Positions 3,001-64,000 of a stretch of DNA of 64,000 nt are shown piece by piece. Position numbers and translations under genes: made by a program. A model generated the notes under the pieces. The model saw nothing but the letters and a program-made list of their open reading frames with translations, was not told the DNA's origin and did no database searches. This DNA is from Bolinopsis microptera. Lineage: Eukaryota; Ctenophora; Tentaculata; Lobata; Bolinopsidae. Each line of letters starts with the position of its first letter. Within the stretch, counting starts at the first letter, position 1. The DNA lies in assembly GCF_026151205.1 (NCBI RefSeq), contig NC_087077.1, positions 13,552,983 to 13,616,982 on the forward strand, in the 5' to 3' direction.

Positions 3001-6000
3001 ATAATCTAGTTTTATATAAAAACTCGTGTTAAGATTTTTGCACAAGACATACATGAGAATTTCTAAAATCACCTGACTGAATCAGCAATTAACAGTCTAA
3101 GCATCCAATTCTCATTCGTATTACAATAATGAACATTATTCAGGTATGCAGTGAATGTGGTGAGATTGGAGCCAGCTTAGGCTGCTTCAAAGAGGGATGC
3201 TCTAACCGGTATCATTACCGGTGTGCTATAAAGGCTAAATGTAAACTCATCAAAACCACGTTTACTGTCTTGTGTCCTACACATTCGGTGAGATTTTATC
3301 CCCTTTTTGGAGTAGCGATTAGCAATTTCTTATAAACATCTACTGTTGCACCTTTGCACGGGAATTTATGTTCTTACACCCGAAATAGATTGATTATTTG
3401 TTAATCTTGAGACTAAATTTTCATTTCAGCACGGGATTGTTGACAACTGTCTGGCTGTGAAACCTCTGATGAAAGTCAGGAACTGTACGTTGTTTCTAAA
3501 TTTTCCAATTATAACGAATTTCTTAAATAAAGTTTCCAAGATTCACGTTTTGCATATCCAGCTGATTTAATAATTGATTGTGATAAATTTACTTCTTTAG
3601 ATCTATCTCAAGAGGAAATAAACGAGTCTGAAGAGCTACTGAGTCGAAGGCCAGGAGACGATGCCCGAGAATTCGCAGTCAAGATCACAAAAACTCGGAT
3701 TATCCGGTCAAGGAAGAACAAGACGACTAAAGAGAAGAGAAAAAGTGCACCTGGGCCTGCAGCGGTTAGAAAAATAATGAAAGAGTCGAGAAGAAGTGCG
3801 CCAATTCCCACTAGAAGAGTTTTTGACGCTGATGGTCAAGGTAGGTACACTATCCTTACAATTATATCAGTTTTGGGGGTTGAATTGAATCTACTAATGA
3901 TCTTTAGAGCTTCTTGTATTTTCAAGGCATTTTATCATAAAAGATTTGGTATTGGTTTCTTTTCTTTCTCTTGCTGATGTCTTGCTTTAATGTCTCAGTT
4001 CTGTCCCGAAAGCGTGGTAGACCACGTAAACATCCTAAAGTAGTGTCTGATAATGATGAAGAGGAGGAGGCAGTGGAGAACGTTCCAGATCAAGGTAAAA
4101 TATGTTTTAAGTATTTTGGCAATATCATTTCATTTCTGAACTTTAAATCTTGTTTTGATAGGTATGATTACCCCATATTTGCATGACTTTTTTTCTTCTT
4201 TTTGTCTTTTTCCTGAGCTGTCCTTTCATAGCTCAGAATATTTCAGCCTTAAACCGGAAGCGTGGAAGATCTCCCAAACATCCAAAAGTGCCTTCAGTCC
4301 GTGAACACGACAGGCCTCGGAAAGATAGCCAAAAAGTTATTTCACCCCCACCAGATGGATCCTGTGAGGATTCAAAAGATGGTACCCAGCCGAGACCACC
4401 TCAGGAAATCACAGAACTGACCGTAAAGAATGATAATGAAGCATCTGGAGCTGCATCAAAAGAAAAGAAGATCAAGTGTCCAAACTGTTCATTTACATTG
4501 CACTCTCCGTACCCCCACAAGATGAGGTTGGACATGTTTTATCACATCAGAAAAGTGCACTGCGGTGACAAATGTTTCCGTAAAAGACAAGCTTGCGAGA
4601 AATGCAACTGTCTCCTTGAACAAGTCTACAGTCCCGTTCTTGAGCAAAACAAAAATCACATCCCGAAATTCGACTACCCTTGCTTCGGATGCAATAAAAA
4701 CTTCGCTCAGAGCTCAGCCCTTAGCGATCACTTAGCCTCTTTCCATTCCAACCAACACAGAAACACGCACATTCAACAACTTATTGAGCGTCTGGACGAG
4801 ATACCGCCGCTAGTGCAGCCCTGTTTTGGGTGCGGAGTTTTCTTCATAGAGAAGAAGTTCTGGATACATTTCAAAGTTCACAGTCCCATTTGTAGAGAGA
4901 AACACGAGCAAGTTCTGAGAGAGAATATGTCTTGAAAAAAGGAGGAGGAGATTAAGAAGGAGTACGATGAGGTAAAAGAGGAAGAAATCTACGAGAAAGC
5001 TGCTGAAACGGTTGATGGTGATCGTGTTGTGGTTGAACAGATTATGATCTTGAAATGTTAATTTTGGGATTGAGCTTTGCACACGTAGGATGCACATTGC
5101 ACAATTTTAATATGATGTTTTATTTGACATTGTTTTTACTTTTTAATATGCTTTTTAATTCTTTTTGGATTATACGTTCATGGTTTTATCCTAAGATGGG
5201 GGGGGGGGTGTCACGTCCGTCTATGTCCGCTTGTCCGCTTGTCTCATAGAATCCAAAAAGGACAGGACATAGGCGGACATAGACGGACATAGGCGGACAT
5301 AGGCGGACATAGACGGACATAGGCGGACATAGGCGGACATTAATGGACACCTAAATTGATGAATAAAATGTTCAATTTTTGCTGTTATAGGGGATCATGT
5401 TTTTGTCCGTTCGGTACCCTATATTTTCAAAACGGACAAAAAATAGAGCGGACAAAAACGGACAAAAATGGACAAAAACGGACAAAAATGGAAATAACAT
5501 TTAGATGCTTCCTCCTCCTACTCTTCCTCCTCCTCCCCCTGGGTCTTCCTGAACTTCCTCAGTCCTCTTCCTCCTCCCCTCCTCAGTCCTCCTCCTACTC
5601 CTCCTCCTCGTCCTCAGTCCTCCTCATCAGTCCTCAACAGTCCTCCTCCTCCCCAGTCCTCCTCCTCCTCTTGAGTCCTTCTCCTGGGTCCTCCTCCTGG
5701 GTCCTCCTCCTCTTCATCCTCCTCCTCTTCCTCCTCAGTCCTCAGTCCTCCTCAGTCCTCCCCCAGTCCCCCTCCTCCTCCTCCTATTCAGTCCTCCTCC
5801 TCCTCCTCCTTCTCAGTCCTCCTCAGTCCTCCTCCTCCTCCTCCTCCTCTTTCCTCTCAGTCATCCTCCTCAGCCATCCTCCTCAGTCCTCCTGGGTCCT
5901 CCTGGGTCATCCTCCTCAGTCCTCCTCCTCCTGGGTCCTCCTCCTCCTCTTTATCCTCCTCATCTTCCTCCTCGGTCCTCAGTCCTCCTCCTCCTGGGTC

Positions 6001-9000
6001 CTCCTCCTCATCCTTCTCATCAGTCCTCCTCCTCCCCAGTCCTCTCCCAGTCCCCCTCCTTCTCCTCCTCCTATTCAGTCCTCCTCCTCCTCCTCCTCCT
6101 CAGTTCTCCTCAGTCCTCCTTCTCATTTCTCCTAAGTCCTCCTGAGTCCTCCTCCTGAGTCCTCCTCCTCTTCCTTCTGAGTCCTCCTCCTGAGTCCTCC
6201 TCCTCCCTCTCAGTCATCCTCCTCAGTCATCCTCCTCAGCCATCCTCCCCAGCCATCCTCCTCAGCCATCCTCCTCAGTACTCCTCAGTCCTCCTCCTTC
6301 TCAGTCATCGTCAGTCCTCCTCCTCAGTCCTCCTCAGTCCTCCTCCTCCTCCTGGGTCCTCCTCCTCCTCCTCCTGGGTCCTCCTGGGTCTTCCTGATCC
6401 TCCCCAGTCCTCTTCCTCCTCCCCTCCCCAGTCCTCCTCCTACTCTTCCTCCTCGTCCTCAGTCCTCCTCCTCAGTTCTCCTCAGTCCTCCTTCTCATTT
6501 CTCCTAAGTCCTCCTCCTGAGTCCTCCTCCTGAGTCCTCCTCCTCTTCCTTCTGAGTCCTCCTCCTGAGTCCTCCTCCTCCTCCCTCTCAGTCATCCTCC
6601 TCAGTCATCCTCCTCAGCCATCCTCCCCAGCCATCCTCCTCAGCCATCCTCCTCAGTACTCCTCAGTCCTCCTCCTTCTCAGTCATCGTCAGTCCTCCTC
6701 CTCAGTCCTCCTCCTCCTCCTGGGTCCTCCTCCTCCTCCTCCTGGGTCCTCCTGGGTCTTCCTGATCCTCCCCAGTCCTCTTCCTCCTCCCCTCCCCAGT
6801 CCTCCTCCTACTCTTCCTCCTCGTCCTCAGTCCTCCTCATCAGTCCTCAACAGTTCTCCTCCTCCCCAGTCCTCCTCCTCCTCCTGGGGCCTTTTCCTGG
6901 GTCCTCCTCCTGGGTCCTCCTCCTCCTGGGTCCTCCTCCTCCTGGGTCCTCCTTCTCCTCCTCAGTCCTTCTCCTCCTCCTCCTCAGTCCTCTTCCTCCT
7001 CTTCCTCCTCCTCCTCCCTCTCAGTCATCCTCCTCAGCCATCCTCCTCAGCCATCCTCCTCAGTCCTCCTCCTTCTCAGTCCTCCTCCTGAGTCCTCCTC
7101 CTCCTGAGTCATCCTCCTCAGTTCTCCTCCTCCTCCTCCTAGGTCCTCTTTCTGGGTTCTCCTCCTCCTCCTCCTCCTGGGTCTTCCTGATCCTTCTCCT
7201 CCCTCTCAGTCATCCTCCTCAGTCATCCTCCTCAGTCATCCTCCTCAGCCATCCTCCTGAGTACTCTTCAGTACTCTTCAGTACTCTTCAGTACTCTTCA
7301 GTCCTCAAAATGTTTGTCCGCTAATGTCCACCAATGTCTGCTAATGTCCACCAATGTCCATCCAAGTCCACCAATGTCCGTCCGGGTCCGCCAATGTCCG
7401 TCCGAGTCCGCCAATGTCCGTCCGAGTCCGCCAATGTCCGTCCGAGTCCGCCAATGTCCGTCCGTGTCCGCCAATGTCCCAAAAAACACGTCCGTTGTCT
7501 CATAGAATCCAAAAAGGACAGGACATAGGCGGACATAGACGGACATGACACCCCCCCCCCCCCCCCCCCCCCTAAGATTCAAATGATCAATACTATTGTA
7601 TTCTACAAATAAATTTGGTACCATCATCAAATGCTTATCTATGAAATTTTCACATGATCTAGAAGTTGGGCTTTTGAATGACTTTTAAATTCAGAATTTT
7701 GTAATTGTAATTTAATAATGCAGCTTTATAATACTGATGACCCTACTGTACCAGTTTTACAGTCTGAGAAAAACGTCACCATTTGCAGGAGATGGAGAAG
7801 CAAATGAAACCGGTAGAAAAACATATGAGTGTTTCGGATGCGGCTACCTCTTCATCAGAAACACGTCCATCAGGAAGCACTTCAAATCACGGCCCGGTTG
7901 CCGGCAACCCCACATTCAGCGATGTATTGATAACGAAAATATATTGCCACCTGAAACTCTAATCTGCTTTAGTTGCGGGCATTTTGTGGAGGAAGGCAAG
8001 ATGATGGGCCACTTGAGTAATGTGCCCCAACAGTGCTGCAAGGACGAGCACATCCGTGTAGTTAGGGATGTTAAGGGTCTCGATGTTAAGGAGTACTTTA
8101 AGGAGGACAAACGAAAATTGCGTCCACGTCAGCGGGAAGGTAATTTGAATTTCAGTTTATTAATTTAGTGGCAGCATCTTAGACGGCAGCCTAATTGTTA
8201 TATGAATTCAAGATATTTCGGATGAAAATCGTCCGTTTAATTCCTTTCAAATTTACAATTTTAATATCCACCATTTTTCAGAAAAGGCACCCATTTCCGG
8301 GTACAAGTGCTTTGGTTGCTTCCACCCATTTAACACTCGAAGAACTCTGCGTGATCATCTCAAATCTCGCCCAGAGTGCCATCGAACGAATTTGGAACAT
8401 CTAATCGCCAATGACAACGACATCCCTTCTGAATTTAAATTGTGCTACGGTTGTGGAAGTCTCATTGTAAAGTCCACGGTTATGGAACTCCATTATAGAA
8501 AACAGGAGTTTTATGGAGACTGTAGACGAAGACACGAAGCAGTTATGAGAGAAAAACGTGACAAAATTCCTGACAATGATGAAGGCGAACCAAAGAATGA
8601 GGTTATGGCTGAAGAATGGGTAGACGATAGAAAGCACGAGAAACAAACAAAATACAAAAACATTCCAGCCGAAAACGATAATGAAGAAGAAATTGTAGGG
8701 GGGTTTAATCACGAGGTAAGCAACAATGAATTAAAGCTGTATTGCCCGCATAAAGACCACAAATTTGCCAGTCCCCAAAACATGAATCGGCACATCATGA
8801 ATACTAATAGTGAAGCTTGTTTAAGTCTTCATATTGAAGGTTTTCTTGAGTCCGGGGACCGAGTCCCGGCACCGTGGATGGTTTGCCTGAACTGTGGGTG
8901 CTTTGTTAAGAAAATCCATGACCACGTCGAAAAGAGTGATAGAGGCTGTACTGCTGAACACTTAACTGTTGGGGGAGGAGACCAAGATGAAGATGTTGAG

Positions 9001-10233: not shown

Positions 10234-10841
10234 GGTGACAGTGGCAGTTTCAAAAAAGAAAGAGATACTATCATTTATCTAGTTAATGTTTGATGTCTTT
10301 AAATGCGATCACCAAAATTTTTCACACTGAACACTTTGATAAGAAATTGTGCGAACTACTTTCATCGAGCCCTTGAACAACTTTTCCATATTTTTCTTTA
10401 TTTATGCAATTATTTACGAGTCAAAACGGTTATAATGTTTTTACAGTTGTCAATCAGCTTTTGTGATGCAGGTCATATTTTAACATAATTTATTATAATA
10501 ATTTTATTATTCTTAATAATGTTCGTTAGATACACTCACTTTGTCTGCTCTTGCAAATAGTAAGTTTGAGGCAATACCTTACTAAATCTCACCCTTAACC
10601 TGAGTATTGATGTAAATTGTTAACATATCTATCTTTTCTTCCATCATTGAATTGATGTGCAGTTGCATTATTAAGATTAGAAAATCTACCCAACTCCTTT
10701 TATTAACAGTCTAACTAATCAATTGAACGTCAAAGCATGAAGTGTGTTGCTATGATACGAAAACTCGCGGACTAACTTACCATGGAGTACTGTGGCGTCA
10801 CCTTAGAAACGAGGTGACGTCACGTGGATAACACGTGACAT
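10234..10841. other. Intergenic spacer
   Basis: AT-rich sequence between the stop of the ePHD gene and the first GPATCH2-like exon. I see no canonical AATAAA just after 10233 and no coding exon. The last 40 bases hold CRE and E-box motifs, listed separately. Confidence 0.6.
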
Positions 10842-10853: not shown

Positions 10854-13800
10854 GAGAGTCGGGGCAGGAGCCGGAAACACAAACTGTTTGGTGACACTCA
10901 GGATATCACCTCTGATGGTACCTGCTCCAATAGAGGTTTGTCAGATTTCAGTTCAAACATTTTGGTCACCTATGTGAACGACCCGACCCCTTATCTCATT
11001 GTATCTGAGAAGTTGCTTTTCACTTCCTTCTGATCTCCTGATCTCCCTCTAACCCGACCCATTTTCAGCCTGCAACTCTTGGGAGGAATCTGACGATATT
11101 AACTCCTACTTCTGCCACCAACTCTCAACCTTATCAATACCCAGTGAGTTTAGAAGTATTCAGCTGCGGTTTAAAACTCCGCTGACCACAAAACATTATG
11201 TCAGATGGACGATGGTTTCAGTACTGGATGTTTAAAACTAATTAATTTGATCGCGAATATTGGGCAAATGGGCAAGGCATCTGGGGACTTTTCGGTTTCA
11301 CCAACGTTTATCGCTGTTAATTGGAAATACTGGGGAGGGGTCAAAATTCAGTACACATACATTAGACTCGTTTCTCAGTCACTGAGTGCCTGATTAAAAT
11401 GATTAATTCGAGTATGCCTTGCTATTATCACTCATTCTAGGAATATGTTTTAAGACCCAACGTATGTGTACTGACATTTAACCCCCCCCCCCCCTCCCCT
11501 GTAGGTAGGTCACTGATTATTAAATACAGAATACTTTCATTTTATATACCATAATAGGTGTTAGTCATGAGGGTAACTTAACTATATAACATTTTTGCCG
11601 CCGTTTAGATAAACACCCCCTTGCAGTATTTCTGTATTGGACTGAATATTGAATAACTTGCTTCTTAATCTTGTCTTTTTGCACTATGTTCACGAACATG
11701 TTCACTGATCTATATGGTTCAATTAGTCGCCTGGTATTTAGTAATTTAGGTGAGTTCAGAGTTTTGAGTGTCTGGTAAAACCCCGATTTTTATCGGTGTT
11801 TGCGGTAAATCGGGGTGCAGTAAATCGTGGTTTTACTATATAAGGCTACTTTTAAGACAAATAAAGTGATTCAGCAATTTTCACAGTGAATCTTGCCGGG
11901 TTTATAAAAAAGTAAATGTGATAAGGTTCCGGTGTACCCGTTGATACGTAAATTTGTAAAACCTCGCCTGTTTTAATATTCATTTTTTTGAAAGCCAGCT
12001 GAAGAAGGTGACGTAAGTTATCTCCAAAAAATCGAGCGAGAGGTAGAGGCCGTATAGAGTTGACACTTCAAATTAGTGAAGAATAATCTCCAATATTCTT
12101 GACAACCTGACTTTTGTCTCAGAAAGTGCAGAACATCCGCCCAGAAAGAAGCTAAAACGGCGCAAGAACCGTAAAGTAAAGAGAACGCGAGTCAACAGAC
12201 CTACAGTCCACATATCAGAGAGTTCGGACGTAACGCCTACAAGCCCTGGCAGCTCTCAAGTGGTGAGTTCAATATGCGCATGCGCGCAGTCAGTTGCACG
12301 TGCAATAATTGCCAATTATTATAATTCGTTCCACGTGTAATTTTGGGTTGCACGTGGTTAGTTCAATTTGTATTTGGTGAGTAGAAATTGACGTTTTGAT
12401 AATTATTCAAATGGGCTGTTGCAATTGAATTTAGTCAGCTTGAGAAAAAATTACAGGTCACCTGAAATTATGTTGATTAAACTCGGGAACGCTTGTCCTT
12501 AATGACCTAAAATAAACGATATAACGTAGTAGCGGACTTGATTATATAATCGTTCGGCACACTGTTGAGAATGAGATCCCACTGCTGAATTTTAATCCGT
12601 TGTTAAATTGAATCAAGAAAACATTAACACGTGAACTCTCCAGATCAGTGTAGCAAGTGATGACACAGTCCAGGAGGCCATGTCAGTGGGTGACGCTAGT
12701 AGTGATAGCTCTCTCAGTCTCGGTCACATTACCGACCTTGGTAAGTTAATTCCAATATTTTATTGTTATCTTACTATTTCAATATTTCATAATGTTTTGC
12801 ATTTTCTGACAGAGCAAGTTCAACAGTTTTCAGCCAATCATTGCCATGTATGGAGATCAAAAATTTCATTATATATTTTTTGCAATAAGTTAGCTACAAT
12901 TATAGTATGGAATTATATATGGTAGTTCAAAGCTTAGATGGAAGCAGTGAATAACAGGTTAACGCTTTTTTACCTAATCGGTTTAGCAGGACTCACATCG
13001 ATTTTATCCCATCCCAAAACCCAAACACTTAATAACATTAATAAACATGATAAATCTTCTAACAACTATCACTGACAAAGCAATTGATAAAAACGGAGTA
13101 CTGAAGATAAACGATTAACGAATACTATTTTGAAGATAAAAAAGATAGTTGAAATCAAAATTGTTGCATCGATTGATTGGTTACAGGTCATATCATTGAA
13201 AGGCAATATTTGAATTAACCCTGAGTTGTACAGAGCTACTGTTAACCTAAGATGAGAAGTACGTACCGTATCCGGCTTAAAGTACGTACGGTACGAGGTT
13301 TTTTATTAGTACGTACCGTACAACCACTTTAAGGGGGCAGGGGGGGTCTTCATGGAAATTTTCTCAAAATCGACTTTTTAGTTGTTTCTGATAAAGGGGA
13401 GAAATATCTATCAGATGCTTTTGATCCCGTGGAAAAATATCGTTCCTAGCCGAAATTATTGCCGGTCAAAGGTCAGCGCGTGCAGGGTGTGTACTGTGTA
13501 ATTGGATTGCGCGAGCGATTTTTGATCGCGTGCCCTGATAAGCGAGTCTAAAAATCTTTCTTCTCCTACATTGTTTGAGCAATCGCCCTGAAACTTTCAG
13601 GATATGTTCTAGGGATCATTTAGAAGAGATGAGCTGGGCAGAATTTTGAGATAGGCCTTTAAACATTTTTTATTTGATTTTGAAAATCGTGGACCTCGTT
13701 TCTTGATGATTTTTCGAGGTCCACGATTTTCAAAATCGAATAAAATTTTTTTAAAGGCCTATCTCCTTATCTCAGACTTTTCATTCTACAAAAGTATAGA

Positions 13801-28800: not shown

Positions 28801-31800
28801 TTTAAAATTATTCACACTTTAGTATTCGCAAACTTACATTTAATTCTATACATTCCTATCGGCTTTAAAGTTTACCCATATTTTAATGTTCAGGAGGCAC
28901 AGACGCTGACGATGAACTGTCGTGTTGGGAGGGACCTTGTTTCCATCGCTCCAGTGAAGACGATATGGAGATGGCTGATACTTCAGGTCATTGTTTTTAT
29001 GTTTTATTCGTAGTGATTATAATTGTCCTGGTGATTATTGTCATGGTGATTATTGTCCTGGTGACTTTTCATTGTTTCCCTGATTTACAGCCCCTTCTTC
29101 AACTTGTACAAAACCAACAATAACGAATCAAATTTCTTCTGAAGGAATATAATTTTGAATTTCGTAATTAAAGAGGACATTCAAAATTAACACAACAACA
29201 TAACAAAAAACAGCGTGAACTATTTAGCTGTGTAATATTTACAGAGTACATTGAGCTACCACACAGAAAAGCGCAGCTACATGATATACTAGAATAGACT
29301 TGTACATGGTGTATAGTGTGTACTGTGTAATAATGTTTTTCTGAAACTATGAAAGTATAAACACCATAACACTGCTCAACTGTAGTATAGTACGGAAATA
29401 TCAGATTTGGCCCACAATCGATCAAATCATACTTCTAAAATGTGGGCCAACTTCTGCAAAACAGGACAGCTTCATTCTGTAAACAAACGTTTGTTTACAA
29501 GGCATCGACTATGCAGGGCCAGCAAAATACAAATTATAATGAGGTCTGATCGTCATCTACTTACAGCGTTCGATGTCTGTGTGAAGGTAAAATGGTGATA
29601 TCCTCTGGATCAGGCAGAGGTTGAGTGTTATCGGGATTATTTCTTTAGTAGTGGAACAGCAATACTAAGGTAATGGGACTACTGCGGACCCTCTACCGGC
29701 CAAACCTTGTTAACAAAGCCGCAGTCAAGGTTCGGTGAACGGTAGTTAAAAGCGCTTAAGGGACATAAGTCAAAATTGGTAGAGCAACATCATGTAGTGG
29801 ACATCTTAAGAAATGAGGAGTGGGTAGAATGTTAGGTTGCTCCTTTATAAATCGTCTTTTTCTCCGATAATAAGTTGACATCAAGTCTTGAAAATTATTC
29901 GAGAAGAATCTCGAATAATTTAGTTGCAGCGTGCCACATGGCTATCTAAACTGCAAACCCTACCCATTGCTGAGCAAGGCCTTTATCTTCTCCGACGAGC
30001 GGGATCATCAATAATGAGGTCTGATCGTCATCTACTTACAGCGTTCGATGTCTGTGTGAAGGTAAAATGGTGATATCCTCTGGATCAGGCAGAGGTTGAG
30101 TGTTATCGGGATTATTTCTTTAGTAGTGGAACAGCAATACTAAGGTAATGGGACTACTGCGGACCCTCTACCGGCCAAACCTTGTTAACAAAGCCGCAGT
30201 CAAGGTTCGGTGAACGGTAGTTAAAAGCGCTTAAGGGACCCACTCCTCATTTCTTAAGATGTCCACTACATGATGTTGCTCTACCAATTTTGACTTATGT
30301 CCCTTAAGCGCTTTTAACTACCGTTCACCGAACCTTGACTGCGGCTTTGTTAACAAGGTTTGGCCGGTAGAGGGTCCGCAGTAGTCCCATTACCTTAGTA
30401 TTGCTGTTCCACTACTAAAGAAATAATCCCGATAACACTCAACCTCTGCCTGATCCAGAGGATATCACCATTTTACCTTCACACAGACATCGAACGCTGT
30501 AAGTAGATGACGATCAGACCTCATTATTGATGATCCCGCTCGTCGGAGAAGATAAAGGCCTTGCTCAGCAATGGGTAGGGTTTGCAGTTTAGATAGCCAT
30601 GTGGCACGCTGCAACTAAATTATTCGAGATTCTTCTCGAATAATTTTCAAGACTTGATGTCAACTTATTATCGGAGAAAAAGACGATTTATAAAGGAGCA
30701 ACCTAACATTCTACCCACTCCTCATTTCTTAAGATGTCCACTACATGATGTTGCTCTACCAATTTTGACTTATGTCCCTTAAGCGCTTTTAACTACCGTT
30801 CACCGAACCTTGACTGCGGCTTTGTTAACAAGGTTTGGCCGGTAGAGGGTCCGCAGTAGTCCCATTACCTTAGTATTGCTGTTCCACTACTAAAGAAATA
30901 ATCCCGATAACACTCAACCTCTGCCTGATCCAGAGGATATCACCATTTTACCTTCACACAGACATCGAACGCTGTAAGTAGATGACGATCAGACCTCATT
31001 ATTGATGATCCCGCTCGTCGGAGAAGATAAAGGCCTTGCTCAGCAATGGGTAGGGTTTGCAGTTTAGATAGCCATGTGGCACGCTGCAACTAAATTATTC
31101 GAGATTCTTCTCGAATAATTTTCAAGACTTGATGTCAACTTATTATCGGAGAAAAAGACGATTTATAAAGGAGCAACCTAACATTCTACCCACTCCTCAT
31201 TTCTTAAGATGTCCACTACATGATGTTGCTCTACCAATTTTGACTTATGTCCCTTAAGCGCTTTTAACTACCGTTCACCGAACCTTGACTGCGGCTTTGT
31301 TAACAAGGTTTGGCCGGTAGAGGGTCCGCAGTAGTCCCATTACCTTAGTATTGCTGTTCCACTACTAAAGAAATAATCCCGATAACACTCAACCTCTGCC
31401 TGATCCAGAGGATATCACCATTTTACCTTCACACAGACATCGAACGCTGTAAGTAGATGACGATCAGACCTCATTATTGATGATCCCGCTCGTCGGAGAA
31501 GATAAAGTAGGGTTTGCAGTTTAGATAGCCATGTGGCACGCTGCAACTAAATTATTCGAGATTCTTCTCGAATAATTTTCAAGACTTGATGTCAACTTAT
31601 TATCGGAGAAAAAGACGATTTATAAAGGAGCAACCTAACATTCTACCCACTCCTCATTTCTTAAGATGTCCACTACATGATGTTGCTCTACCAATTTTGA
31701 CTTATGTCCCTTAAGCGCTTTTAACTACCGTTCACCGAACCTTGACTGCGGCTTTGTTAACAAGGTTTGGCCGGTAGAGGGTCCGCAGTAGTCCCATTAC

Positions 31801-34800
31801 CTTAGTATTGCTGTTCCACTACTAAAGAAATAATCCCGATAACACTCAACCTCTGCCTGATCCAGAGGATATCACCATTTTACCTTCACACAGACATCGA
31901 ACGCTGTAAGTAGATGACGATCAGACCTCATTATTGATGATCCCGCTCGTCGGAGAAGATAAAGGCCTTGCTCAGCAATGGGTAGGGTTTGCAGTTTAGA
32001 TAGCCATGTGGCACGCTGCAACTAAATTATTCGAGATTCTTCTCGAATAATTTTCAAGACTTGATGTCAACTTATTATCGGAGAAAAAGACGATTTATAA
32101 AGGAGCAACCTAACATTCTACCCACTCCTCATTTCTTAAGATGTCCACTACATGATGTTGCTCTACCAATTTTGACTTATGTCCCTTAAGCGCTTTTAAC
32201 TACCGTTCACCGAACCTTGACTGCGGCTTTGTTAACAAGGTTTGGCCGGTAGAGGGTCCGCAGTAGTCCCATTACCTTAGTATTGCTGTTCCACTACTAA
32301 AAAAATACAAATTACTCTGAACCAAAAAGACAAATACGGGATATAAAGCTCCTTCATAATACGTGACCTATTGAATTGTGGAGTTTGAATACGATCCACT
32401 GCACTAGTACTACTGACGTCACCTAGTTAAACCATGTATCGACCACCGTTTAAGCCCGAGCTTGCTAAATTATGGTCTTGTTTAACATTCGCGACTGAAC
32501 CGGTACAAAATGGGAAATCTTCGCAGACAGCTCATTGATCAAAAAGTTACGTGAAATTTGGCTGGAAATCTTCACTGTACTGTGAGAAAATAGTGAGGTT
32601 TTTAACGTTTACTGCGGATGCTACTCATGGGAAACTATCTTAGACGTTGAGCATGAGAAGAGATTACCAGAATTTTGCTAGATCTTCTAAAATAACTCGT
32701 TAAATGGACTTTTTGAAGGTCATTCCAACCCACGATGTAATCCTCATAACCTTCCTGCTATAGCTATGTGGTATTTGTATATAGCTATATACAAAATGAA
32801 ACAACGGGTCACGTCAAAAAAAATGTTTCGATCAATAACAAAACATGATCTCTTTAGTAACAACTAAAATATAAACTAAGATGTGAGGATACCGAGTGTA
32901 AAACTAAAAATTCACATGATAAAAATCTCGTGAAACATTATAATAGAATTATTTAAAGGGTTCAAATATTAGCGCCTCCAAGAGTATAGAGCTATATACT
33001 TAGGAAATATAGGTTACCTCACTCATTTTCGTCACAGACTAAATCATTATAGTGCATCAATGCTTTTGTGGACAGTATTTGGTTTATACTTTTTTCCGTA
33101 GAATTATTCTTCTACTAAACTCATAATGTTAACCCATTGTGGGTTTGTCGTCACAGTAAATCTTATTAATTAAAACGCGTTTCCAGCAGGTCTCCAAGCT
33201 CGAAACAAGAAGCGAGTGGTTCGGATTGACACAGATCTCCAAACTGGAACAGTACCTGAGATGAAGGGACCTCAATCTCCTCTAAAAACACGACGAGGTG
33301 AGGAGAAAACAATATGTAGTTCAGTAAATAATACCAGTAGCACTGTGCTGACGAGGTGAGGAGAAAACAATATGTAGACAGGTTCAGTTAATAATACCAG
33401 TAACGACGAGGTGAGGAGAAAACAATATGTAGTTCAGTAAATAATACCAGTAGCACTGTGCTGACGAGGTGAGGAGAAAAGAATATGTAGACAGGTTCAG
33501 TAAATAATACCAGTAGCACTGTGCTGAAACAATTTCAACATTTTCATGTGGTTACCCCCACATGTGGATACCCCCACAGAAAGACGGTGGATGTTTTATT
33601 GAACTTATTGAACAAATTAAGTGCCCTAGTGTAGAGCATTACAGACCCTAGCTCTCTCAGTTCCTCTGTTATACCTGCCGTACAACAAGGACATCTATTG
33701 CTTTATCCCGTCCAATTTCTGGGGTTGCCTTTAAAAATGAAAGTTTTTTCATGGGTTGTTTCATAGCCATGGTTTTATGATGCCGTTGTGGTGAAGTTGG
33801 CATTTACGTTAGAAGAATCATGAGTTAGAATTCTCTATTATTTTCGTTTTTATTGGTGTCCATAGGTAACTTGTGGACATTAAGTAAGTTTAAATTCCCC
33901 CCTCAGAGAAGCTCAAGACACGACACAAAACCCAAGCGGCCCGAGAACACGGTGGTAGTTCCACATCAAGTGAGTACTGAGTAGTTAATGAAAACAGTTG
34001 ACAGCTTATTCTATCAATAAAGAAACTAATCGCTCCTTTTTTAATAGCATTGAACTATGCAAGGAGATCTGTCATCACTGAACTCAAATTACATATGACA
34101 TTTATGGATAAAGAGAATAATGACAATTTAATGAAGTCGAATGAACATACAAAAGCTTAGATACGCGGTGATTGGTGAACAATGGCAGCAAAAATAAGAA
34201 AGTTGGTCACGTGACTAATGTTTATTAAATTGCACAATCTGTACGGATGATGGGAGTGGAACTGTAGCTGAGGTGTAGCTGAGGTGTAGCTAAGGTGTAG
34301 CTGAGGTGTACTATTCGGGGATTTGTCTGCTGACAACGCCGGAGATAAGTCAATGACTAATCTCCGTAAAACTGCACGAACCCATTACCCATCATGAACC
34401 CATCACCCATATTAAAGTTAAATTTAATTTATATTCCAACTCAAAACGTTAACATTACAACTGTGCATTGATAGAACGTACCTTAGATTTAGTGTTGGTC
34501 ACCCTCAGATAATTCAATTATACGTTAGAAACACGTGATGCCCGAGGATATAATCTGACTGACTAGTGAATCATAGAGCTGTGGTCACTGCTTGTGCAAG
34601 GGAATTTAAAAACAATACAATTATCCCCCATGAGGTGTAGCTTGTAACTGAAGCTCTTGTTGTCATGCCATTATTTTGCCAATTTAGTATGCGGTTCAGA
34701 ACAAATTGATGCACAAAAGATGGGATTAATTCAACAAAAAGTTCAATTTGGCTAGCGATCAGAGTAGAGAACACAGAGTAGAGAACACAATGAAATTAAA

Positions 34801-47610: not shown

Positions 47611-47809
47611 TGACAATCCACAATCATTGTCCGCGAATACGACAATGGACATTGGACAAATAACTGACAATGGTATACGTTTTACAACTTTGTCGTCATT
47701 GTCAAATAAAATCCATACTTTCTACAATACCGAGCTAGACGGTTTCACTAAAGGGTCGTTCACATATTCAATATTACGTAATCAGCAGAGTGCAGAGGGG
47801 GGTTTTCAA

Positions 47810-48160
47810 ATGCTTACGGTTGATTACGGGGGGTGGGGGGGTTTGGTCGTTGATTACGTAATTGGTAATCAAAATTTTAATTTTTTACCGATTTTCGAAA
47901 TACCAATTGGACAATTTTCGTTAATTATGTAATCAACATTTTTTCAAGTCTCAGACAGCAATGAATAATGTGTATTTCTTGGATCTCTACATCAAAATTT
48001 AACTCAAAAATGGGGGGCCGGGGGTGTCTAATCTTGATTACGTAATATAGGAGGGGGGTCAAACCTTGATTACGTAATATAGGTAATATAGGTAATATAG
48101 GTAATATAGGTAAGGGAGGGGGTTCGGTCTTGATTACGGAGGGGGGGGGGGGGTAAAAAT
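47810..48160. repeat. GATTACGTAAT repeats, (GTAATATAG)n and G-tracts
   Basis: TTGATTACG(TAAT) recurs in both orientations. GTAATATAG is tandemly repeated about five times near 48070-48115, and runs of G interrupt it (47829-47848, and about 14 G near 48140-48154). No gene. Confidence 0.7.
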
Positions 48161-48366
48161 TCCAAAATATTGATTATTTAATATGTGAACGACCCCTAAA
48201 TATAAATATAATTCAATCGAGCTAGATAATGAATAGCAAATAAAAGACAAATTAGAACATAACTCATTTTTTTAAATTTCCTCGAACAAAGCTTTCGACT
48301 TGCGGGTTTTTAATATATGATAATATAACAGTAGATTAACGTAAATCAGTTTCCAAAAATAAAAGT

Positions 48367-48449
48367 TGTCAGAAGTGGGATTTGAATCCACGCCCACATT
48401 CATGGACCAGAGTTTGAATCTGGCGCCTTAACCACTCGGCCATCCTGAC
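48367..48449 (-). tRNA. tRNA-Leu(CAA) or tRNA-derived copy
   Basis: The minus strand folds as a class II tRNA. The acceptor stem GTCAGGA pairs with TTCTGAC. The D-arm is GCCGAGTGGTTAAGGC, the anticodon stem-loop is CCAGA-TTCAAAC-TCTGG (anticodon CAA), and a long variable arm is typical of Leu. It has no intron. A TTTT run follows the 3' end, as for Pol III termination. The T-arm reads GTGGATTCAAATCCCAC: the normally invariant G53 is A, leaving an A-C mismatch and an imperfect B box, so it may be poorly transcribed or a pseudogene. Confidence 0.8.
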
Positions 48450-48660
48450 ATAATTCAAGGAGAACTTTGCTAGTTTCATACCGCTGACTAGAGCCTGCGT
48501 CACTTTATTTGTTATCATTGTTTCCATACATGAATTGTGAGTAGCTGCAGATATTTAATGTCATTACCTCATTTACCTGGGGACCTCAGGCTATCATGTT
48601 CATAAACACCGAATAGAGATTTCGATTAGGCGGAATGACAGGCTGAGCGCGGCCCAGTAA

Positions 48661-52217: not shown

Positions 52218-52219
52218 AC

Positions 52220-53103: not shown

Positions 53104-53650
53104 GGGGGGGGGGCTTACCATATTAAAGTATATGAAAGTCTATGTATTTTGCTGATTTGACCCCGGGGATATAGTTATACTTTAATATACTTTTTAATGT
53201 ACCTTTATCCCGATTTTTGGGAGGCCTAAAAATTGCCGCCCACAACAAGGTTGAAATGCGATTCTAAATGAATTAGAAAATTTCGTGCGAAAATATTGAA
53301 AACTGATATGTGATAGTTATGTCGATTTCGCCTTAGTATCCACTATCCACTTTTCAACAGATCTAGAAATTGAGCTATAAATTACAGAGAATATGTCATT
53401 TATGATCACCTGCAATTGTAATTGTTTCATATAAAGTTAGTCTCATTCAAAAATATTGAAATCTGATCAATTTATGGGCCAAAAACTATAAATTTTGGCT
53501 CATAACTCGACCATTTTTGTCAAAACTGGATGAAAGTTCGTGAAAGAGTTCAGGAGAAAACAGGCTCATCTTGCTAAACTAAACGAAGAATATGGCATTT
53601 TGGGCATATTAAAGCATATTAGCGTAGTATTTGACCCCCCCCCCCCCCCC
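53104..53650. mobile_element. Small poly-G/poly-C-capped element
   Basis: It opens with a 10-base G-tract (53104-53113) then CTTACCATATTAAAGTATAT, and closes with GGGCATATTAAAGCATATTA, a GTAGTATTTGA tail and a C-tract of about 16 (53635-53650). CATATTAAAG-like words lie at 10-bp spacing at both ends and, inverted, near 53170-53210. There is no coding sequence. I do not see a flanking duplication. It is assigned to the same structural class as 5198-7571 and 55122-58822. Confidence 0.55.
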
Positions 53651-54597: not shown

Positions 54598-57500
54598 CTA
54601 AATCTTCTCTGAGTTCCCTATTTTGATTTTCTTCTCCTCCAGATCTGTACTAGACCCGGAGCGTTTGAAGGGAACAACTTTCAGACCGAAGTTTCTAGCT
54701 TCCTCGCACTCTGAAATATAAACACATGCTAGTCTTTGAAACCTTTACTAATATAAGGATTAATATTAACGTTAATACAAAAATTGTATAAGAGTGAGGC
54801 ATTATTGTGTATGAATTAACATATGGTGGCAGGTGCCTGGCAACGGATGTGTTTTTCGATCTTAAGCGGTAATGAACGTTCATGATATCAGGGCACACGG
54901 ATCTAAGTCAACATCCGTGTTTCACACTTAACCGTCACAAGAAACGTCCGCTGGATATGATAATAAATGAGGTGTCTCGGTAAATGAGCGGAGAGTCTGC
55001 GACATAGACTTCTCATATTATGACCTACAAAGCATGGTATTCAGATGAGCAAGAAATTGACAGACCAAGAGTTAAACCCTGGCAAACGTTAGATAGGACG
55101 GTACAACCAGTCTGAGGAAACGGGGGGGGGGGGGGGGGGGGATCATGTTATTTTTTGTCCGTTTTTGTCCGTTTTTGTCCGTTAATTTTTGTCCGTTTTG
55201 AAAATATAGCTGCCAAACGGACAAAAACGGACAAAAACGGACAAAAACGGACAAAAATTGTAACTTTTGATTTAAATTTTCTCCACAATTTGTAACAGGC
55301 TATCTGCAGAAATGGGTAGCCCGGTTAATGACCATGGTCCTTTCTCAAACTTTTAATCTTCAATTAGGCACAAAGAATACCTAGTCAACACATTTTTAAT
55401 AACATAAAAAGGGATGAAAAGTTTTATTACTGGAGAGTAAAACTTTGTTAAACACAAAGATTCTTGAGCACATTTTGAGTCAGACTCAAATGCGCTTAAA
55501 AACATTTTAGTATATAACAATAAATTATGTTAACAATAACACCAACAATAATTATAAATTGAACAAATTATTGAGAGATGAAAGAGAGGAAAAGGAGGAG
55601 GGGGGACTGAGGAGGGGGACTGAGGAGGGAGAGGAGGGGGGCTGAGGAGGAGTGAGACTGAGAAGGAGAACTGAGGAGGAGGAATGAATAGGAGGAGGAG
55701 AAGAAGGACTCAAGAGGAGGAGGACCCAAGAGGAGGAGGACCCAGGAAAAGGCCCCATGAGGAGGACTGGGGAGGAGGAGGACCGATGAGGACTGATGAG
55801 GACTGATAAAGAGGACTAAGGACGAGGAGGAGGAGGAGGAGGAGAAGGACTGAGGAGTGAGGAGGAGGACTGATGAGGAGATGAGGTGTATGAGGAGGAT
55901 GAGGAGGAGAAAGGAGATAAAGGATGAGGATAAGGAGGACTGAAGAGGAGGACTGGTGAAGAGGACTGATGAGGAGGAGGACTGAGAAGGGGAGGACTTA
56001 GGAGGACTGAGGAGGGGAGGACTTAGGAGGAAGAGGAGGATTGAGCAGGAGGAGGACTGAGGAGTAGAAGGAGGAAGAAGACTGAGGAGGATCAGGAGGA
56101 CCCAGGAAGAGGAGGAAGAGGAGGAGGACTGAGGAGGAGAAGGAGGACCCAAGAGGAGGAACCAGGAAGAAGAGGAGGAGGAGGACTGAGAAGGAGGAGT
56201 GAGACTGAGAAGGAGAACTGAGGAGGAGGAATGAATAGGAGGAGGAGGAGAAGAAGGACTCAAGAGGAGGACTGAGGAGGAGGACTAAGGAGAAGGATGA
56301 GGAGGAGGACCCAAGAGGAGGAGGACCCAAGAGGAGGAGGACCCAGGAGGAGGACCCAGGAAAAGGCCCCAAAAGGAGGACTGGGGAGGAGGAGGACTGA
56401 TGAGGACTGATGAGGACTGATAAAGAGGACTAAGGACGAGGAGGAGGAGGAGTGAGGAGGAGGACTAATGAGGAGGAGGTGTACAAGTAGGATGAGGAGG
56501 AGAAAGGAGATGAAGGAAGGAGATGAAGGATGAGGATAAGGAGGACTGAGGAGGAGGACTGGTGAAGAGGACTGATGAGGAGGAGGACTGAGAATGGGAG
56601 GACTTAGGAGGACTGAGGAGGGGAGGACTTAGGAGGAAGAGGAGGATTGAGGAGGAGGAGGACTGAGGAGTAGAAGGAGAAAGAAGACTGAGGAGGATCA
56701 GGAGGACCCAGGAAGAGGAGGAGGACTGAGGAGGAGAAGGAGGACCCAGGAGGAGGAACCAGGAAGAAGAGGAGGAGGAGGACTGAGAAGGAGGACTGAG
56801 AAGGAGAAGGAGGACTGATGAGGAGGATGAGGATGAGGAGGAGGGTGACTGGGGAAAGGATTGAGGAGGAGGAAGACTGATGAGGAGGATGAGGATGAGG
56901 AGGAGGGTGACTGGGGAAAGGATTGAGGAGGAGGAAGACTGAGGAGGAGGAAGAGGAGAAGGACTGAGGAGGAGAAGGACTGAGTAGAAGGAAGAGGAGG
57001 AGGACTGAGGAGGAGGACCCAGGAGGAGGAGGACACAGGAAAAGGCCCCAGGAGGAGGAGGATGACTTGGGAGGAGGAGGACTGATGAGGACTGATGAGG
57101 AGGAGAAGTAAGTGGATGAAGAGGATGAGGAGGACTGAGGAGGAGGACTGGTGAGCAGAAGGAGGAGGACCCAGGAGGAGAAGGAGGAGGAGGAGGATAA
57201 CTGAGGAGGAGGAGAAGGACTGAGGAGGAGAAGAGGGATCCAGGAGGAGAACCCAGGAGGAGAAGGAGGACTGAGGAGGAGGACTAAGGAGAAGGAGGAC
57301 TGATGAGGAGGATGAGGAGGAGGGTGACTGGGGAAAGGACTGAGAAGGACTGAGGAGGAGAATGCGGACTGAGGAGGAGGAACCAGGAAAAGGAGGAGGA
57401 GGACTGAAGAGGAGGACTGAGAAGGCGAAGGAGGACTGATGAGGAGGATGAGGATGAGGAGGAGGGTGACTGGGGGAAGACTGAGGAGGAGGGTGACTGG

Positions 57501-58651
57501 GGGAGGACTGAGGAATATGAGGAAGACTGAGGAGGCGGAGGAAGAGGAGAAGGACTGAGGAGGAGAAGGACTGAGGAGGATGACTGAGGAGGAGGAGGAC
57601 TGAGGAGGAGGAGGAGGACTGAGAAGGAGGAGGACTGAGGAGGAGGAGGACTGAGGAGGAGGAGGAGGAGGAGGAGGAGGAGGAGGAGGAGGAGTGAATA
57701 GGAGGAGGAGGGGGACTGGGCAGGACTGAGGAGGAGGACTGAGGAAAAGGATGAGGAGGAGGACTGAGAAGGAGGACTGAGCTGAGGAGGAGAACTGAGG
57801 ACTGAGGAGGAAGAGGAGGAGGATGAAGAGGAGGTGGACCCAAGAGGAGGAGGTCCCAGGAGGAGGACCCAGGAGGAGGACTCAGGAGGAGGAGGAGGAG
57901 GATGACTGAGGAAGACTGAGGAGGAGGAGGAAGCATCTAAATATTATTTCCATTTTTGTTATTTTTTGTCCGTTTTTGTCCGCTCTATTTTTTGTCCGTT
58001 TTGATAATATAGGGTTCCGAACGGAAAAAACGGATAAAAAACAGGATCCCCCCTGGAGGAGGAGGAGGAGGAGGAGGAGAAGGATGACTGAGGAGGACTG
58101 AGAAGGAGGAGGACTGAGGAGTACTGAGGAGGATCGCTGAAGAGGATGGCTGAGGAGGATGGCTGAGGAGGATGACTGAGGAGGATGACTGAGAGGGAGG
58201 AGGAGGAGGACTGAGAAGGAGGAGGAGAAAGAGGCCCAGGAGGAGGACTCAGGAGAAAGAGGAGGAGGAGGACTCAGAAGGAGGAATGAGGAGGACTCAG
58301 AAGGAGGAATGAGAAGGAGGAGAACTGAGGAGGAGGAGGAGGACTGAATAGGAGGAGGAGGGGGGACTGGGGGAGGACTGAGGAGGAGGAGTACTGACGA
58401 AAAGGATGAGGAGGAGGACTGAGGAGAAGGACTGAGGACTGAGGAGGAAGAGGAGGAGGATGAAGAGGAGGAGGAGGACCCAGGAGGAGGAGGACTGAGG
58501 AGGATGATGAGGACTGCAGAGGAGGAGGACTGAGGAGGACTGAGGAGGATGGCTGAGGAGGATGGCTGAGGAGGAGGAGGAGGAGAAGGTGGAAGAGGAG
58601 GAGGAGGAGGAGGAGGAGGAGGAGGAGGAGGAGGAGGAGGAGGAGGAGGAG

Positions 58652-58683
<32 letters not shown>

Positions 58684-58792
58684 TAAATGTTATTTCAATT
58701 TTTGTTATTTTTTGTCCGTTTTTGTCCGTTTTATTTTTGTCCGTTTTGAAAATACAGCTGCCAAACGGACAAAAACGGACAAAAAAACATGA

Positions 58793-58823
<31 letters not shown>

Positions 58824-61570: not shown

Positions 61571-63813
61571 CTGGAGACAAATATAAATTAAAGGGAATGT
61601 AATTTTAAAGATAATCTCACAATTATATGACTTATTCCCCTTATTGCATGTCATCTTCGTTCCAAAACTTTTTATGTCCTATGCATACACTCCTTGATAG
61701 TTATCTTGATCTAGTATCTTTGTTTCACACAATAGAGCATAAGTTTTGTGGTTTATCCACTGGGCGTAGAGTTTGTGTTTAAGCTACCAAATTTTATTAT
61801 TATTATTATTTATTGATATAACCAGGATTGACGCAGAGTCATTGATAGCACCGTAAAGTTGTCAGAAATTGAAGATTTTTGTACGTACAATGTTTTTAAA
61901 TGAGAACACTGCCATTTTAACTTTGCAGGGGAAAAAAACAGTTTAGAAATTATACCTCGTGATCCTGTAACACACTCGTAAAACTAATTGCGATATAATA
62001 CATACATAATTATTAATTACATATTATCTGGCTTCTAGTATTACGCTCTCCTCCCCCCCCCCCCCCTTCCCCCTTCCCCCTTTCCCAATATCAATAGGTT
62101 CCATGTTTGTTTTGATTTTACGATATTGTATACTTGCCAAGTTTTCATAATCGTATGAGGTACATGTAATTAGGCTTGCCTTGCTTTCGAGAGGTGCAAA
62201 ATAGTTAATTTCAGAAATTTATTGTCAACGAATATTTTTTCTGCATACTGAAACGTGATGATACCATAAATGATATGCTTCCAGTTCCTTGAAATTTTTG
62301 CTAAAAATTATAGTAATTTTCATTTTTCAATTCCACCGGCATGAAGGTAGCTGCTGACGCCCTGAAGGGACGAGTATATGAGTACAGTGTGCCCTCACTG
62401 ATTTGTACACGTGCAGGAAGTTCAAGCTGGTCTGCGAGGATGTCTAGGGCAAATAATGCTACACCAACAATCAACATCTACAGCATGGATCTCATCAGAG
62501 ACAAGCTCTGCTCTCCGAAAGTGGTAGACCCTCATCGAAGCTCATGTTGTTGGCAAGCCCACCGATCGATATTTTCTCCGTTGTTTCTGCGCATCATCAC
62601 ATCATGTGTAGAAAAAACCTTGGTAAGATTGTTGTCTGCAGCTAAGCTATCTGGAGTGCAGTCAGACTATCTGCAGCCAGGCATTTGTAATACAATTAGA
62701 CCCTCTGCAGCTAAGTTATCTGAAGCTGCTGGCAGGCCCTAGAATGCATTTAAAATCGTATTATTTGAATCGTTCTCTAAACTGCGTTTAAAAATGATCT
62801 CTATTGCCAAATTGCTTCTAGGCCTTTTGCACGAACAAAATCCTCGAAAATATTTTGCCATTGCTATCCTCAGCCACTCAAATTTTGACAGAATACTTTA
62901 ACTTTTTAACAGGAAAAAGTGACACTAAATGTTTTACCGCAACTTAAATCCTAACTGCACACAAAAATACCTGTTGCATCCTCATTAAACTTTTATCTTG
63001 AGGCATGGATTAGTTTCTTATTTTTTGTCGAAAATGTCATGCTAAAACTATCAAAATGCGCTTTGCAGTTATGGACAGGGTACTATGGTGACTAAATCCA
63101 TATAGTAGAACCCAGGAATACCTGGCACATAAGCGATACTGTAATAAACCATGAAATGTCAGGAAATGTCAGAGGCAAATATTTGAAGTTTGAACCACAT
63201 AAAACACGATTATATGGTAGATATTCGGGATTGTTCTTTGAGCTGTTGATAAAATCTTAAGATAACGAGAAGCTTATTGATTATAACATATATACGCACA
63301 CCTTATTCAATATTCATATATCATAAAATATGATAATGTAATAACAGGGGATCATTGCTGTGACGTGAGAAGAGGCACCTCAAGCTCACCTGACCTCCCC
63401 TGTACCCAATCACAGCGATTGTCAGCCCCACGTGACTACAGAGGCTAGGTGACCTAGTGGTATTACGCACATGATCGACAACTGAAACCAAGCAAGGAAG
63501 ACGCCTTGATCCGTGAGTCAAATACAGACAGTGACGGAGGATTTGTCTGGATAACTCTAGAGGAACTGTTCTTATACCGTGTGGTCATGTTTGTGTGTGT
63601 GTGCTTGTTGTGCTTAGAACGGCTACTAATGCTTGAATTGTCAGAGTTTTAATGCTACAATTTTCAGAACTTATTTTATATCAAACAGATCTTGTAGTTG
63701 TCCGTAATGAGTCGCATGATTAATAAAAAACGGATTTCTCATTATTTGTTCTATTTATTTGTTCTAATTCTATTTATTTCGAATCGGTTTATGTATTGGT
63801 TTGAAAGTGTAAT
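61571..63813. other. Upstream/intronic region of the zinc-finger gene
   Basis: I found no further zinc-finger exon. It contains a C-rich stretch (62050-62090), TTATTATTATT near 61795-61810, and a CTGCAGCTAAG(C/T)TATCTG-type direct repeat near 62636-62730. Short ORFs lack support. Confidence 0.4.
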
Positions 63814-64000
63814 GGGGGGGGGGGGGGGGGTCAACCTCATTTTACCTCATTTTACCTCATCCCAATTTTGCCTTTTTTGGCTGGCCTCATGAGGTAAAAT
63901 GAGGTAAATCTCGGCACAAATTTTTAACAGGTAAAATTCTCTAAATCGTCAATTTAGTCACGAAGGAGTATGGAAGGAGATCTAAATGTGTGCTCCTCTA
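63814..64000. mobile_element. Start of another poly-G-capped element (cut by the window edge)
   Basis: Seventeen G (63814-63830) are followed by TCAACCTCATTTTACCTCAT and a further ACCTCATTTT unit at 10-bp spacing. The inverted AGGTAAAATGAGGTAAATC follows near 63890-63910. The arrangement is the same as at 5198 and 55122, with a different 10-bp word. The right end is not visible. Confidence 0.5.

What the first reader, a model, noticed from the sequence alone, without database searches (positions are those of the whole stretch)
5198..63910. A class of poly-G/poly-C-capped elements with 10-bp-spaced subterminal repeats
Four loci (5198-7571, 53104-53650, 55122-58822, 63814 to the edge) share one plan with different sequences. 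A G-tract of 10-20 is followed by a 10-bp word repeated in register (GTCCGTCTAT/GGACATAGGC, CATATTAAAG, GTCCGTTTTT, ACCTCATTTT). The same word recurs inverted, and the three complete cases end in a long C-tract. No protein is encoded. Spacing of one helical turn suggests binding sites lined up on one face of DNA, as in transposase-recognised subterminal repeats. I know of no named transposon superfamily with G-tract ends of this kind.
Basis: partly seen in the sequence, partly recalled or inferred. Interest (0 to 1): 0.85.

Follow-up and report, generated by a model that had tools for sequence, protein, structure and literature searches.

The report
Poly-G-capped non-coding foldback DNA transposons
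These are non-coding jumping DNA segments, repeated many times in this animal genome, that begin with a run of G, end with a run of C and carry arrays of 10-base words folded into hairpins near the ends; they look real, but the enzyme that moves them has not been identified.

Summary
The observation largely holds, and the loci are insertions. Window elements 5198-7572, 55122-58822 and 63814 (closing 2.77 kb on, outside the window) are bounded by G and C tracts that abut target-site duplications (CCTAAGAT, AGGAAAC, TGTAAT). Of 35 G...C pairs scored, 26 share a flush word of 5 bp or more, mostly 6-7, against 4 of 1190 mismatched pairings. At one insertion site, seven full-length empty paralogues (98-99%) show a clean boundary with a 6-bp duplication. 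The copy at 53104-53650 is a diverged, poorly bounded member of another such family. Five families have clear, unrelated 10-bp words. No protein of their own was found. Best reading: non-autonomous, MITE/foldback-type cut-and-paste transposons. Mutator-like elements here share the general plan but have longer words (14-17 bp) and duplications (8-10 bp); among 26 of 88 such loci, none has caps with a matching duplication. Partial hAT, Merlin and P-element checks gave no partner. Long G/C tracts also occur in minisatellites here, and four internal end copies have only 4-6 G, so the caps may be expanded short G starts.

The parts
5190..5197 (.). left target-site duplication of element w1 (CCTAAGAT)
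   Evidence: flush 6, up to 8 if two C of the tract are counted
5198..5208 (+). w1 left cap, G11
5213..5345 (+). w1 left subterminal words (GTCCGTCTAT..., then GGACATAGGC/GGACATAGAC), hairpin
   Evidence: (TRF period 10, 7.6 copies at 5265-5340), (z -6.3)
5390..5500 (+). internal copy of a GTCCG-family end with only G4
5510..7306 (.). w1 interior, pyrimidine satellite (TCC/AGTCCTCC)
7313..7550 (-). w1 right subterminal words (20- and 10-bp periods)
7551..7572 (-). w1 right cap, C22
7571..7578 (.). right target-site duplication of w1 (CCTAAGAT; its first two C lie in the tract)
53104..53113 (+). w2 left cap, G10
53114..53634 (.). w2 body: diverged member (about 75% identity over parts) of a multi-copy family with words TATACTTTAA
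53635..53650 (-). w2 right C16; off the family's right end as seen in L131 and L132; no target-site duplication
55115..55121 (.). left target-site duplication of w3 (AGGAAAC)
55122..55141 (+). w3 left cap, G20
55142..55262 (+). w3 left end: spacer, GTCCGTTTTT words, loop, inverted words; hairpin
   Evidence: z -12.0
55593..58677 (.). w3 interior, purine satellite (AGGAGGACTGA)
57942..58053 (-). internal copy of a right end with only C6
58690..58793 (-). w3 right subterminal words
58794..58822 (-). w3 right cap, C29
58823..58829 (.). right target-site duplication of w3 (AGGAAAC)
63808..63813 (.). left target-site duplication of w4 (TGTAAT); right copy lies outside the window
63814..63830 (+). 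w4 left cap, G17; element runs to G000:C6:13619566, closed by C9
63831..63930 (+). w4 left end: ACCTCATTTT words, loop, inverted words; hairpin
   Evidence: z -6.6

Best explanation
The loci are non-autonomous DNA transposons (MITE/foldback type) inserted by cut-and-paste. Shown: G cap at one end and C cap at the other, flush target-site duplications mostly of 6-7 bp, a clean empty site, multi-copy families, 10-bp words in direct and inverted array at the ends, no protein of their own found. Inferred: a transposase encoded elsewhere binds the 10-bp word array, which lies on one face of the helix; cuts at the outer edge of the terminal G run; and joins the C-ending strands across a 6-7-bp stagger. 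Inferred too: the terminal run was short at first (about 4-6 G, as in the internal end copies) and lengthened by slippage in a genome rich in long G/C runs. The most likely source of the transposase is a Mutator-like (MULE) element (about 0.4); another known superfamily about 0.3; an unrecognised one about 0.25. The confidence given is for the class (non-autonomous terminal-inverted-repeat transposon), not for the MULE assignment.
For: 26 of 35 G...C pairs share a flush word of 5 bp or more, against 4 of 1190 mismatched pairings; by group: GTCCG 16 of 18, TCCAAC 6 of 8 (the two misses, L096 and L098, lie at one repeated insertion site), ACCTCA 2 of 2, GGGGACT 1 of 1, mini-element 1 of 1, w2 0 of 1, other convergent tract pairs 0 of 4. 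Empty site: of 22 matches to the joined 143-nt flanks, 7 are full length at 98-99% (one more at 82%, four partial ones also span the join), while filled copies break at query 64-69, i.e. a 6-bp duplication; at that site the copy L001/L102 has ACTTAA flush on both sides. In the 100 rows listed there are 77 distinct GTCCG ends, with 18 neighbouring pairs within 6 kb, all convergent; in the 100 rows, 31 distinct TCCAACTACA ends with 9 such pairs, all convergent (recount); reversed-pattern controls 0. Short members with both caps and a duplication: L101 (105 bp), L065 (68 bp), L061 (230 bp). Nested insertion with its own duplication: L058. Hairpin ends: six of six tested have z of -3.0 or lower; for L095, 2 of 200 shuffles folded as well. 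MULE resemblance: L009, L010 and L011 have direct and inverted short words just inside a start that is GG at five of their six ends and GA at one (read by eye); L009 and L011 words share TGTCCG with the GTCCG families.
Against: No coding G-capped element was found. Among 26 of 88 MULE loci fetched, 16 have no tract of 8 or more in range, and two have a G and a C tract in convergent order around the match: L016 (G11...C27), with no shared duplication and no inverted repeat found, and L078 (G8...C8), inside an inverted repeat next to TTAA. MULE duplications are 8-10 bp where ends could be set and their words 14-17 bp, against 6-7 and 10. Duplication length is not uniform: flush 5 (2), 6 (9), 7 (13), 8 (1), 12 (1, inside a TAGTAA microsatellite and therefore ambiguous). 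Two of 18 GTCCG pairs (L017, L021) and four of four 'other' pairs have none. Pairs fetched but left out of the 35: the second pair of L057 and those of L060, L064, L016 and L078 show none (by eye); L131 and L132 are imperfect; L001/L102 is a hit at the site already counted. Long G/C tracts are common outside such elements: 12,691 of 16 or more in the genome; in the first 0.82 Mb of C1, neighbouring tracts within 6 kb are 10 convergent, 5 divergent and 13 of one orientation, and several lie in minisatellites.
Confidence: 0.85

Rival explanations
1. A known superfamily other than MULE moves them: hAT, Merlin, P/Galileo, Dada or similar.
For: A 6-7-bp duplication is nearer to Galileo (7 bp, foldback-like repeats; PMC2775673, passages) and Dada (6-7 bp; PMC3706591, passages) than to the 8-10 bp of the MULEs here. 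hAT (150 matches) and Merlin-type (58 matches) transposase domains are present; three of four Merlin-type loci fetched have 11-bp arrays beside the gene.
Against: hAT: the 1 kb beyond the C-terminal domain was seen at 20 of 150 matches; 18 have no tract of 7 or more, those of L109 lie in another repeat, those of L111 are C tracts where G would be expected. Merlin-type: 4 of 58 loci, no cap apart from one C9 in a C-rich stretch of L126. P-element domains PF21787 and PF21789: 0 matches, but with no positive control. Dada-U6 and Dada-U1 insert into small RNA genes, and Dada-U1 is said to lack terminal inverted repeats (passages); Dada was not searched for here.
Confidence: 0.3
2. An unrecognised transposase lineage whose cleavage signal is a terminal G run, with words that diverge quickly from family to family.
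For: Five families with clear, unrelated 10-bp words (GTCCG, ACCTCA, TATACTTTAA, GGGGACT, TGTACA) share only the G/C caps, 10-bp spacing, plan and, where set, duplication size. Caps are 9-47 long in the pairs, but 4-6 in the four internal end copies found in eight stretches scanned.
Against: No protein has been found to go with it; homopolymer runs also expand at non-element loci here; other repeats in the window also have G-rich ends (47758-48197, 13330).
Confidence: 0.25
3. Assembly or library artefact: homopolymer noise, or G/C tailing.
For: Some stretches of the assembly are homopolymer noise (L060; start of L064).
Against: Flush duplications in 26 of 35 pairs and clean empty paralogues at one site; families with conserved ends.
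Confidence: 0.03

Closest known systems
Tm1, Mutator/Foldback family of root-knot nematodes (PMC3169594; passages including parts of the abstract)
   Same: Mostly non-autonomous; composite ends with tandem short words; variable unit number; MITE-like members.
   Different: Units most often 14 bp, 8-10-bp (mostly 9) duplications, asymmetric 7-bp end motifs; no G caps in the passages seen. Some MULEs of the present genome (L009, L010) resemble Tm1 more than the G-capped elements do.
Galileo, P superfamily, foldback-like (PMC2775673 passages; PMC3573991 start of abstract in a search listing)
   [quoted passage not shown] 7-bp duplications; copies without coding capacity.
   Different: Duplications with a consensus (GTAGTAC); no G caps in what I saw; no P-type transposase found in this genome (no positive control).
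Drosophila Foldback (recalled) and Tetris (PMC4079207, passages)
   Same: Foldback plan; Tetris is apparently non-autonomous with no known partner, and gave rise to satellite DNA.
   Different: Tetris duplications 8-10 bp and about 220-bp internal units. Recalled only: Foldback subrepeats of 10, 20 and 31 bp.
Merlin (PMC8101967, passages)
   Same: Termini with conserved 5'-GG; some families with internal tandem repeats; reported in ctenophores.
   Different: 8-9-bp duplications; no G caps at the four Merlin-type loci examined.

Membership tests
Non-autonomous TIR DNA transposon (MITE/foldback) | Inverted terminal repeats, target-site duplication, multi-copy, non-coding | tested here: met
   26 of 35 pairs have the duplication, the w2 copy does not
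Non-autonomous TIR DNA transposon (MITE/foldback) | Empty sites without element and with one copy of the duplicated target | tested here: met
   one insertion site only
Mutator-like elements (MULE) | 8-11-bp target-site duplication (PMC6446971, passage) | tested here: not met
   mostly 6-7 bp; MULEs of this genome 8-10 bp. Note that another paper gives 4-10 bp for IS256 and MuDR together (PMC10045372, passage), so length alone does not exclude a relative
Mutator-like elements (MULE) | Shares its terminal repeats with a MULE-transposase element | tested here: inconclusive
   26 of 88 matches fetched; two have convergent tracts around the match (L016, L078), neither with a 6-7-bp duplication; ends were set in only 6 loci
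Mutator/Foldback (Tm1-like) | Composite ends of tandem short words | tested here: met
   word length 10, not about 14
P superfamily / Galileo | P-type transposase in the genome | tested here: inconclusive
   0 matches to PF21787 and PF21789, no positive control
hAT | 8-bp duplication (recalled) and hAT transposase between the same ends | tested here: inconclusive
   duplication differs; 20 of 150 loci, one 1-kb flank each
Merlin | 8-9-bp duplication and IS1595-type transposase between the same ends | tested here: inconclusive
   duplication differs; 4 of 58 loci

The most novel reading that the evidence does not exclude
A lineage of cut-and-paste transposons, possibly moved by an unrecognised transposase, in which the cleavage signal is a terminal homopolymeric G run that lengthens at mobile ends, followed by a family-specific array of 10-bp binding words set one helical turn apart and folded into a subterminal hairpin.
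Probability: 0.25. Interest if true: 0.75.

Novelty: new variant of a known kind. Interest (0 to 1): 0.55.

Why it matters
If the caps and the 10-bp arrays are the recognition signals, the families with unrelated words are a natural series for following how a transposase and its binding word change together, and how homopolymer ends are cut precisely. In practice these elements carry long G runs and purine satellites into the genome, and they could easily be missed or collapsed by repeat annotation that masks low-complexity sequence.

Tried and rejected
Element-encoded reverse transcriptase: the 405-aa frame inside L017 is a nested retroelement fragment (it reads like a reverse transcriptase by eye; no Pfam or PDB match). 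The frame has 104 matches listed in the genome, many at 98-99%, commonly in open frames of 924 aa, and a second set at 54%. Apart from the query itself I did not check these against caps one by one. In L057 (a tract pair without a clear duplication) a 277-aa frame also reads like a retroelement by eye.

MULE, hAT and Merlin partner searches: see the full report; no partner found. P-element domains: no match and no positive control. Dada was not searched for.

G-tract repeats that turned out otherwise: window 47758-48197 and L109 have GGGTCGTTCAC inverted repeats and look like a TAA-flanked (PIF/Harbinger-like) repeat with inner G tracts (superfamily by recall); L078 and window 13330 have GGGGGC starts beside TTAA. 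L060 and the start of L064 are homopolymer noise. L059, L062 and L063 are convergent tract pairs without duplication; L057 is imperfect.

Literature: eight searches, of which I saw the listings of at most 15 papers each; none listed is on G-tract-ended transposons. The library holds only open-licence PubMed Central papers, so this is weak evidence that none is in print. Passages only were seen of PMC6446971, PMC12221973, PMC2775673, PMC3169594, PMC13359780, PMC8101967, PMC10045372, PMC3706591 and PMC4079207.

Host: 264.65 Mb, nearly all in 13 large contigs as far as the listed contig lengths show, suggests a ctenophore such as Bolinopsis microptera; this is recall and was not tested.

Full report
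What was checked. The window is G000:C6:13552983-13616982 of a 264.65-Mb genome in 232 contigs. Four loci were named; I call them w1 (5198-7572), w2 (53104-53650), w3 (55122-58822) and w4 (63814 to beyond the edge). The tracts are there: G11/C22, G10/C16, G20/C29 and G17. w4 closes 2.77 kb on, outside the window, with C9 at C6:13619558-13619566, and has no open frame over 100 aa. The long frames in w1 and w3 look mainly like translations of a purine/pyrimidine satellite.

Words and hairpins. At w1 left, w3 left and both ends of w4 the top lag is 10 bp and exceeds 100 shuffles. At w1 right a 20-bp lag leads, and at w3 right the satellite. In w2 itself the 10-bp lag only equals the shuffle maximum, but its relative L129 shows TATACTTTAA repeated (score 35 against 13). 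Other members with a clear top lag of 10 are L020, L058 outer, L061 and L098; L095 is marginal (12 against a shuffle maximum of 11), L096 left has lag 9, and L057, L059, L062 and L063 show no 10-bp lag. Direct words are followed by inverted words, and six of six ends tested fold better than shuffled sequence, z from -3.0 to -12.0; for L095, 2 of 200 shuffles folded as well.

They are multi-copy. The GTCCG-type end plus C10 gives 124 forward and 80 reverse raw matches with 0 in the reversed-pattern control; in the 100 rows listed, 77 are distinct ends, and the 18 neighbouring pairs closer than 6 kb are all convergent. A second family, TCCAACTACA, gives 38 and 170 raw matches, control 0; many rows repeat one end: the 100 listed hold 31 distinct ends and 9 neighbouring pairs, all convergent. 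The w2 body has 82 match rows, itself included, about 75% identical in parts. w4 has a 230-bp relative, L061. By contrast, among all 56 G/C tracts of 16 or more in the first 0.82 Mb of C1, neighbours within 6 kb are 10 convergent, 5 divergent and 13 of one orientation, so most such tracts are not simply paired caps.

Insertions. For 35 G...C pairs I compared the flanks next to the tracts. 26 share a flush word of 5 bp or more, 22 of them 6 or 7; among 1190 mismatched pairings 4 do. By group: GTCCG 16 of 18 (including w1 CCTAAGAT, w3 AGGAAAC, and one inside a TAGTAA microsatellite that is ambiguous); TCCAAC 6 of 8; ACCTCA 2 of 2 (w4 TGTAAT); GGGGACT 1 of 1; a 68-bp mini-element 1 of 1; w2 0 of 1; other convergent pairs 0 of 4. 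Left out of the 35: L001/L102 (flush ACTTAA, but at the site of L096), L131 and L132 (imperfect, 6 of 7 and 5 of 6 letters), and, all without a shared word by eye, the second pair of L057, the noise pairs L060 and L064, and the tracts of L016 and L078. L096 and L098, counted as misses, share one insertion site with L001. There the host sequence is itself repeated: of 22 matches to the joined flanks, 7 are full-length empty copies at 98-99%, one more is at 82%, four partial ones also span the join, and filled copies break at a 6-bp duplication. This shows directly that caps and interior came in as one unit. It is one site.

Caps. In the pairs caps are 9-47 long. Internal copies of GTCCG-type ends, buried in w1, w3, L018 and L001, have 4, 6, 6 and 5 G; the other four stretches scanned had no internal copy by that pattern. 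The genome has 12,691 G/C tracts of 16 or more, several of them in minisatellites. I therefore infer a short terminal G run that lengthened at mobile ends, not necessarily a functional long cap. Real tract lengths need long reads.

Which transposase. MULE domains: 88 matches. I fetched 26 loci. Where ends could be set (L009, L010, L011, L085, L087, L089) the shared flanking words are 8-10 bp, and the start reads GG at 11 of 12 ends by eye. Words of 14-17 bp are clear in L009, L010, L011, L082 and L090, not significant in L079. In L009 and L010 the ends outside the inverted repeat differ from each other, as in Tm1 of root-knot nematodes (PMC3169594). 16 of 26 loci have no tract of 8 or more. 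Two have convergent tracts around the MULE match: L016 (G11...C27, no shared duplication, no inverted repeat found) and L078 (G8...C8, inside an inverted repeat next to TTAA, which points to another type of element). L016 is the nearest thing to a capped MULE and deserves a second look. hAT: 150 matches, 20 loci seen on one side only, no fitting cap. Merlin-type: 58 matches, 4 loci, no cap. P: none, no positive control. So the partner is open. I give MULE about 0.4, another known superfamily 0.3, an unrecognised one 0.25, and not a transposon 0.05.

What it works like, and what it is. It works like a foldback or MITE-type element: non-coding, repetitive inverted ends, cut and paste by an enzyme supplied from elsewhere. 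Membership in MULE is not claimed, since the usual duplication length (8-11 bp, PMC6446971, passage) was tested and not met; a wider range of 4-10 bp for IS256 and MuDR is also in print (PMC10045372, passage). Novelty: in eight literature searches I saw no description of G-capped ends with 10-bp word arrays, but the library is partial and I saw listings and passages only. I rate it a new variant of a known kind.

Noticed in passing
47758-48197; also L109, and similar pieces in L011, L015, L091: Repeat with inverted ends GGGTCGTTCACATATT, inner TGATTACG words and G tracts, flanked by TAA on both sides; looks PIF/Harbinger-like (recalled).
   Followed up: partly
13300-13480; L078:344-3298: G-rich end GGGGGC(C/A)GGGGGGG TCTTCATC next to TTAA; in L078 both ends are present as an inverted repeat around a MULE match.
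   Followed up: partly
L016:1810-5908: A MULE match lies between a G11 and a C27 tract in convergent order, without shared duplication or inverted repeat; a repeated GGGGTCCCGCGGTATATTGCC unit follows the G tract.
   Followed up: partly
L123, L124, L126: IS1595/Merlin-type transposase genes with arrays of 11-bp words on the 3' side of the gene; no inverted repeat bounding the gene was seen within the 2.7 kb fetched.
   Followed up: no
L017:1014-2228 and 104 genome matches: A retroelement-like frame, commonly 924 aa, many copies at 98-99% protein identity and many truncated; no Pfam match for the 405-aa part.
   Followed up: partly
L060; L064:1-670: Assembly stretches made of homopolymer runs only, one of them next to N; likely assembly noise.
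   Followed up: no
30238-32307: Tandem array, 475-bp unit, 4.4 copies, 97% alike.
   Followed up: no
48365-48450: tRNA-Leu (caa) gene on the minus strand.
   Followed up: yes
interiors of w1, w3, L018, L058, L095, L096, L097, L098: Two different end families (GTCCG and TCCAAC) carry the same kind of purine satellite (AGGAGGACTGA) inside; why is not explained.
   Followed up: no
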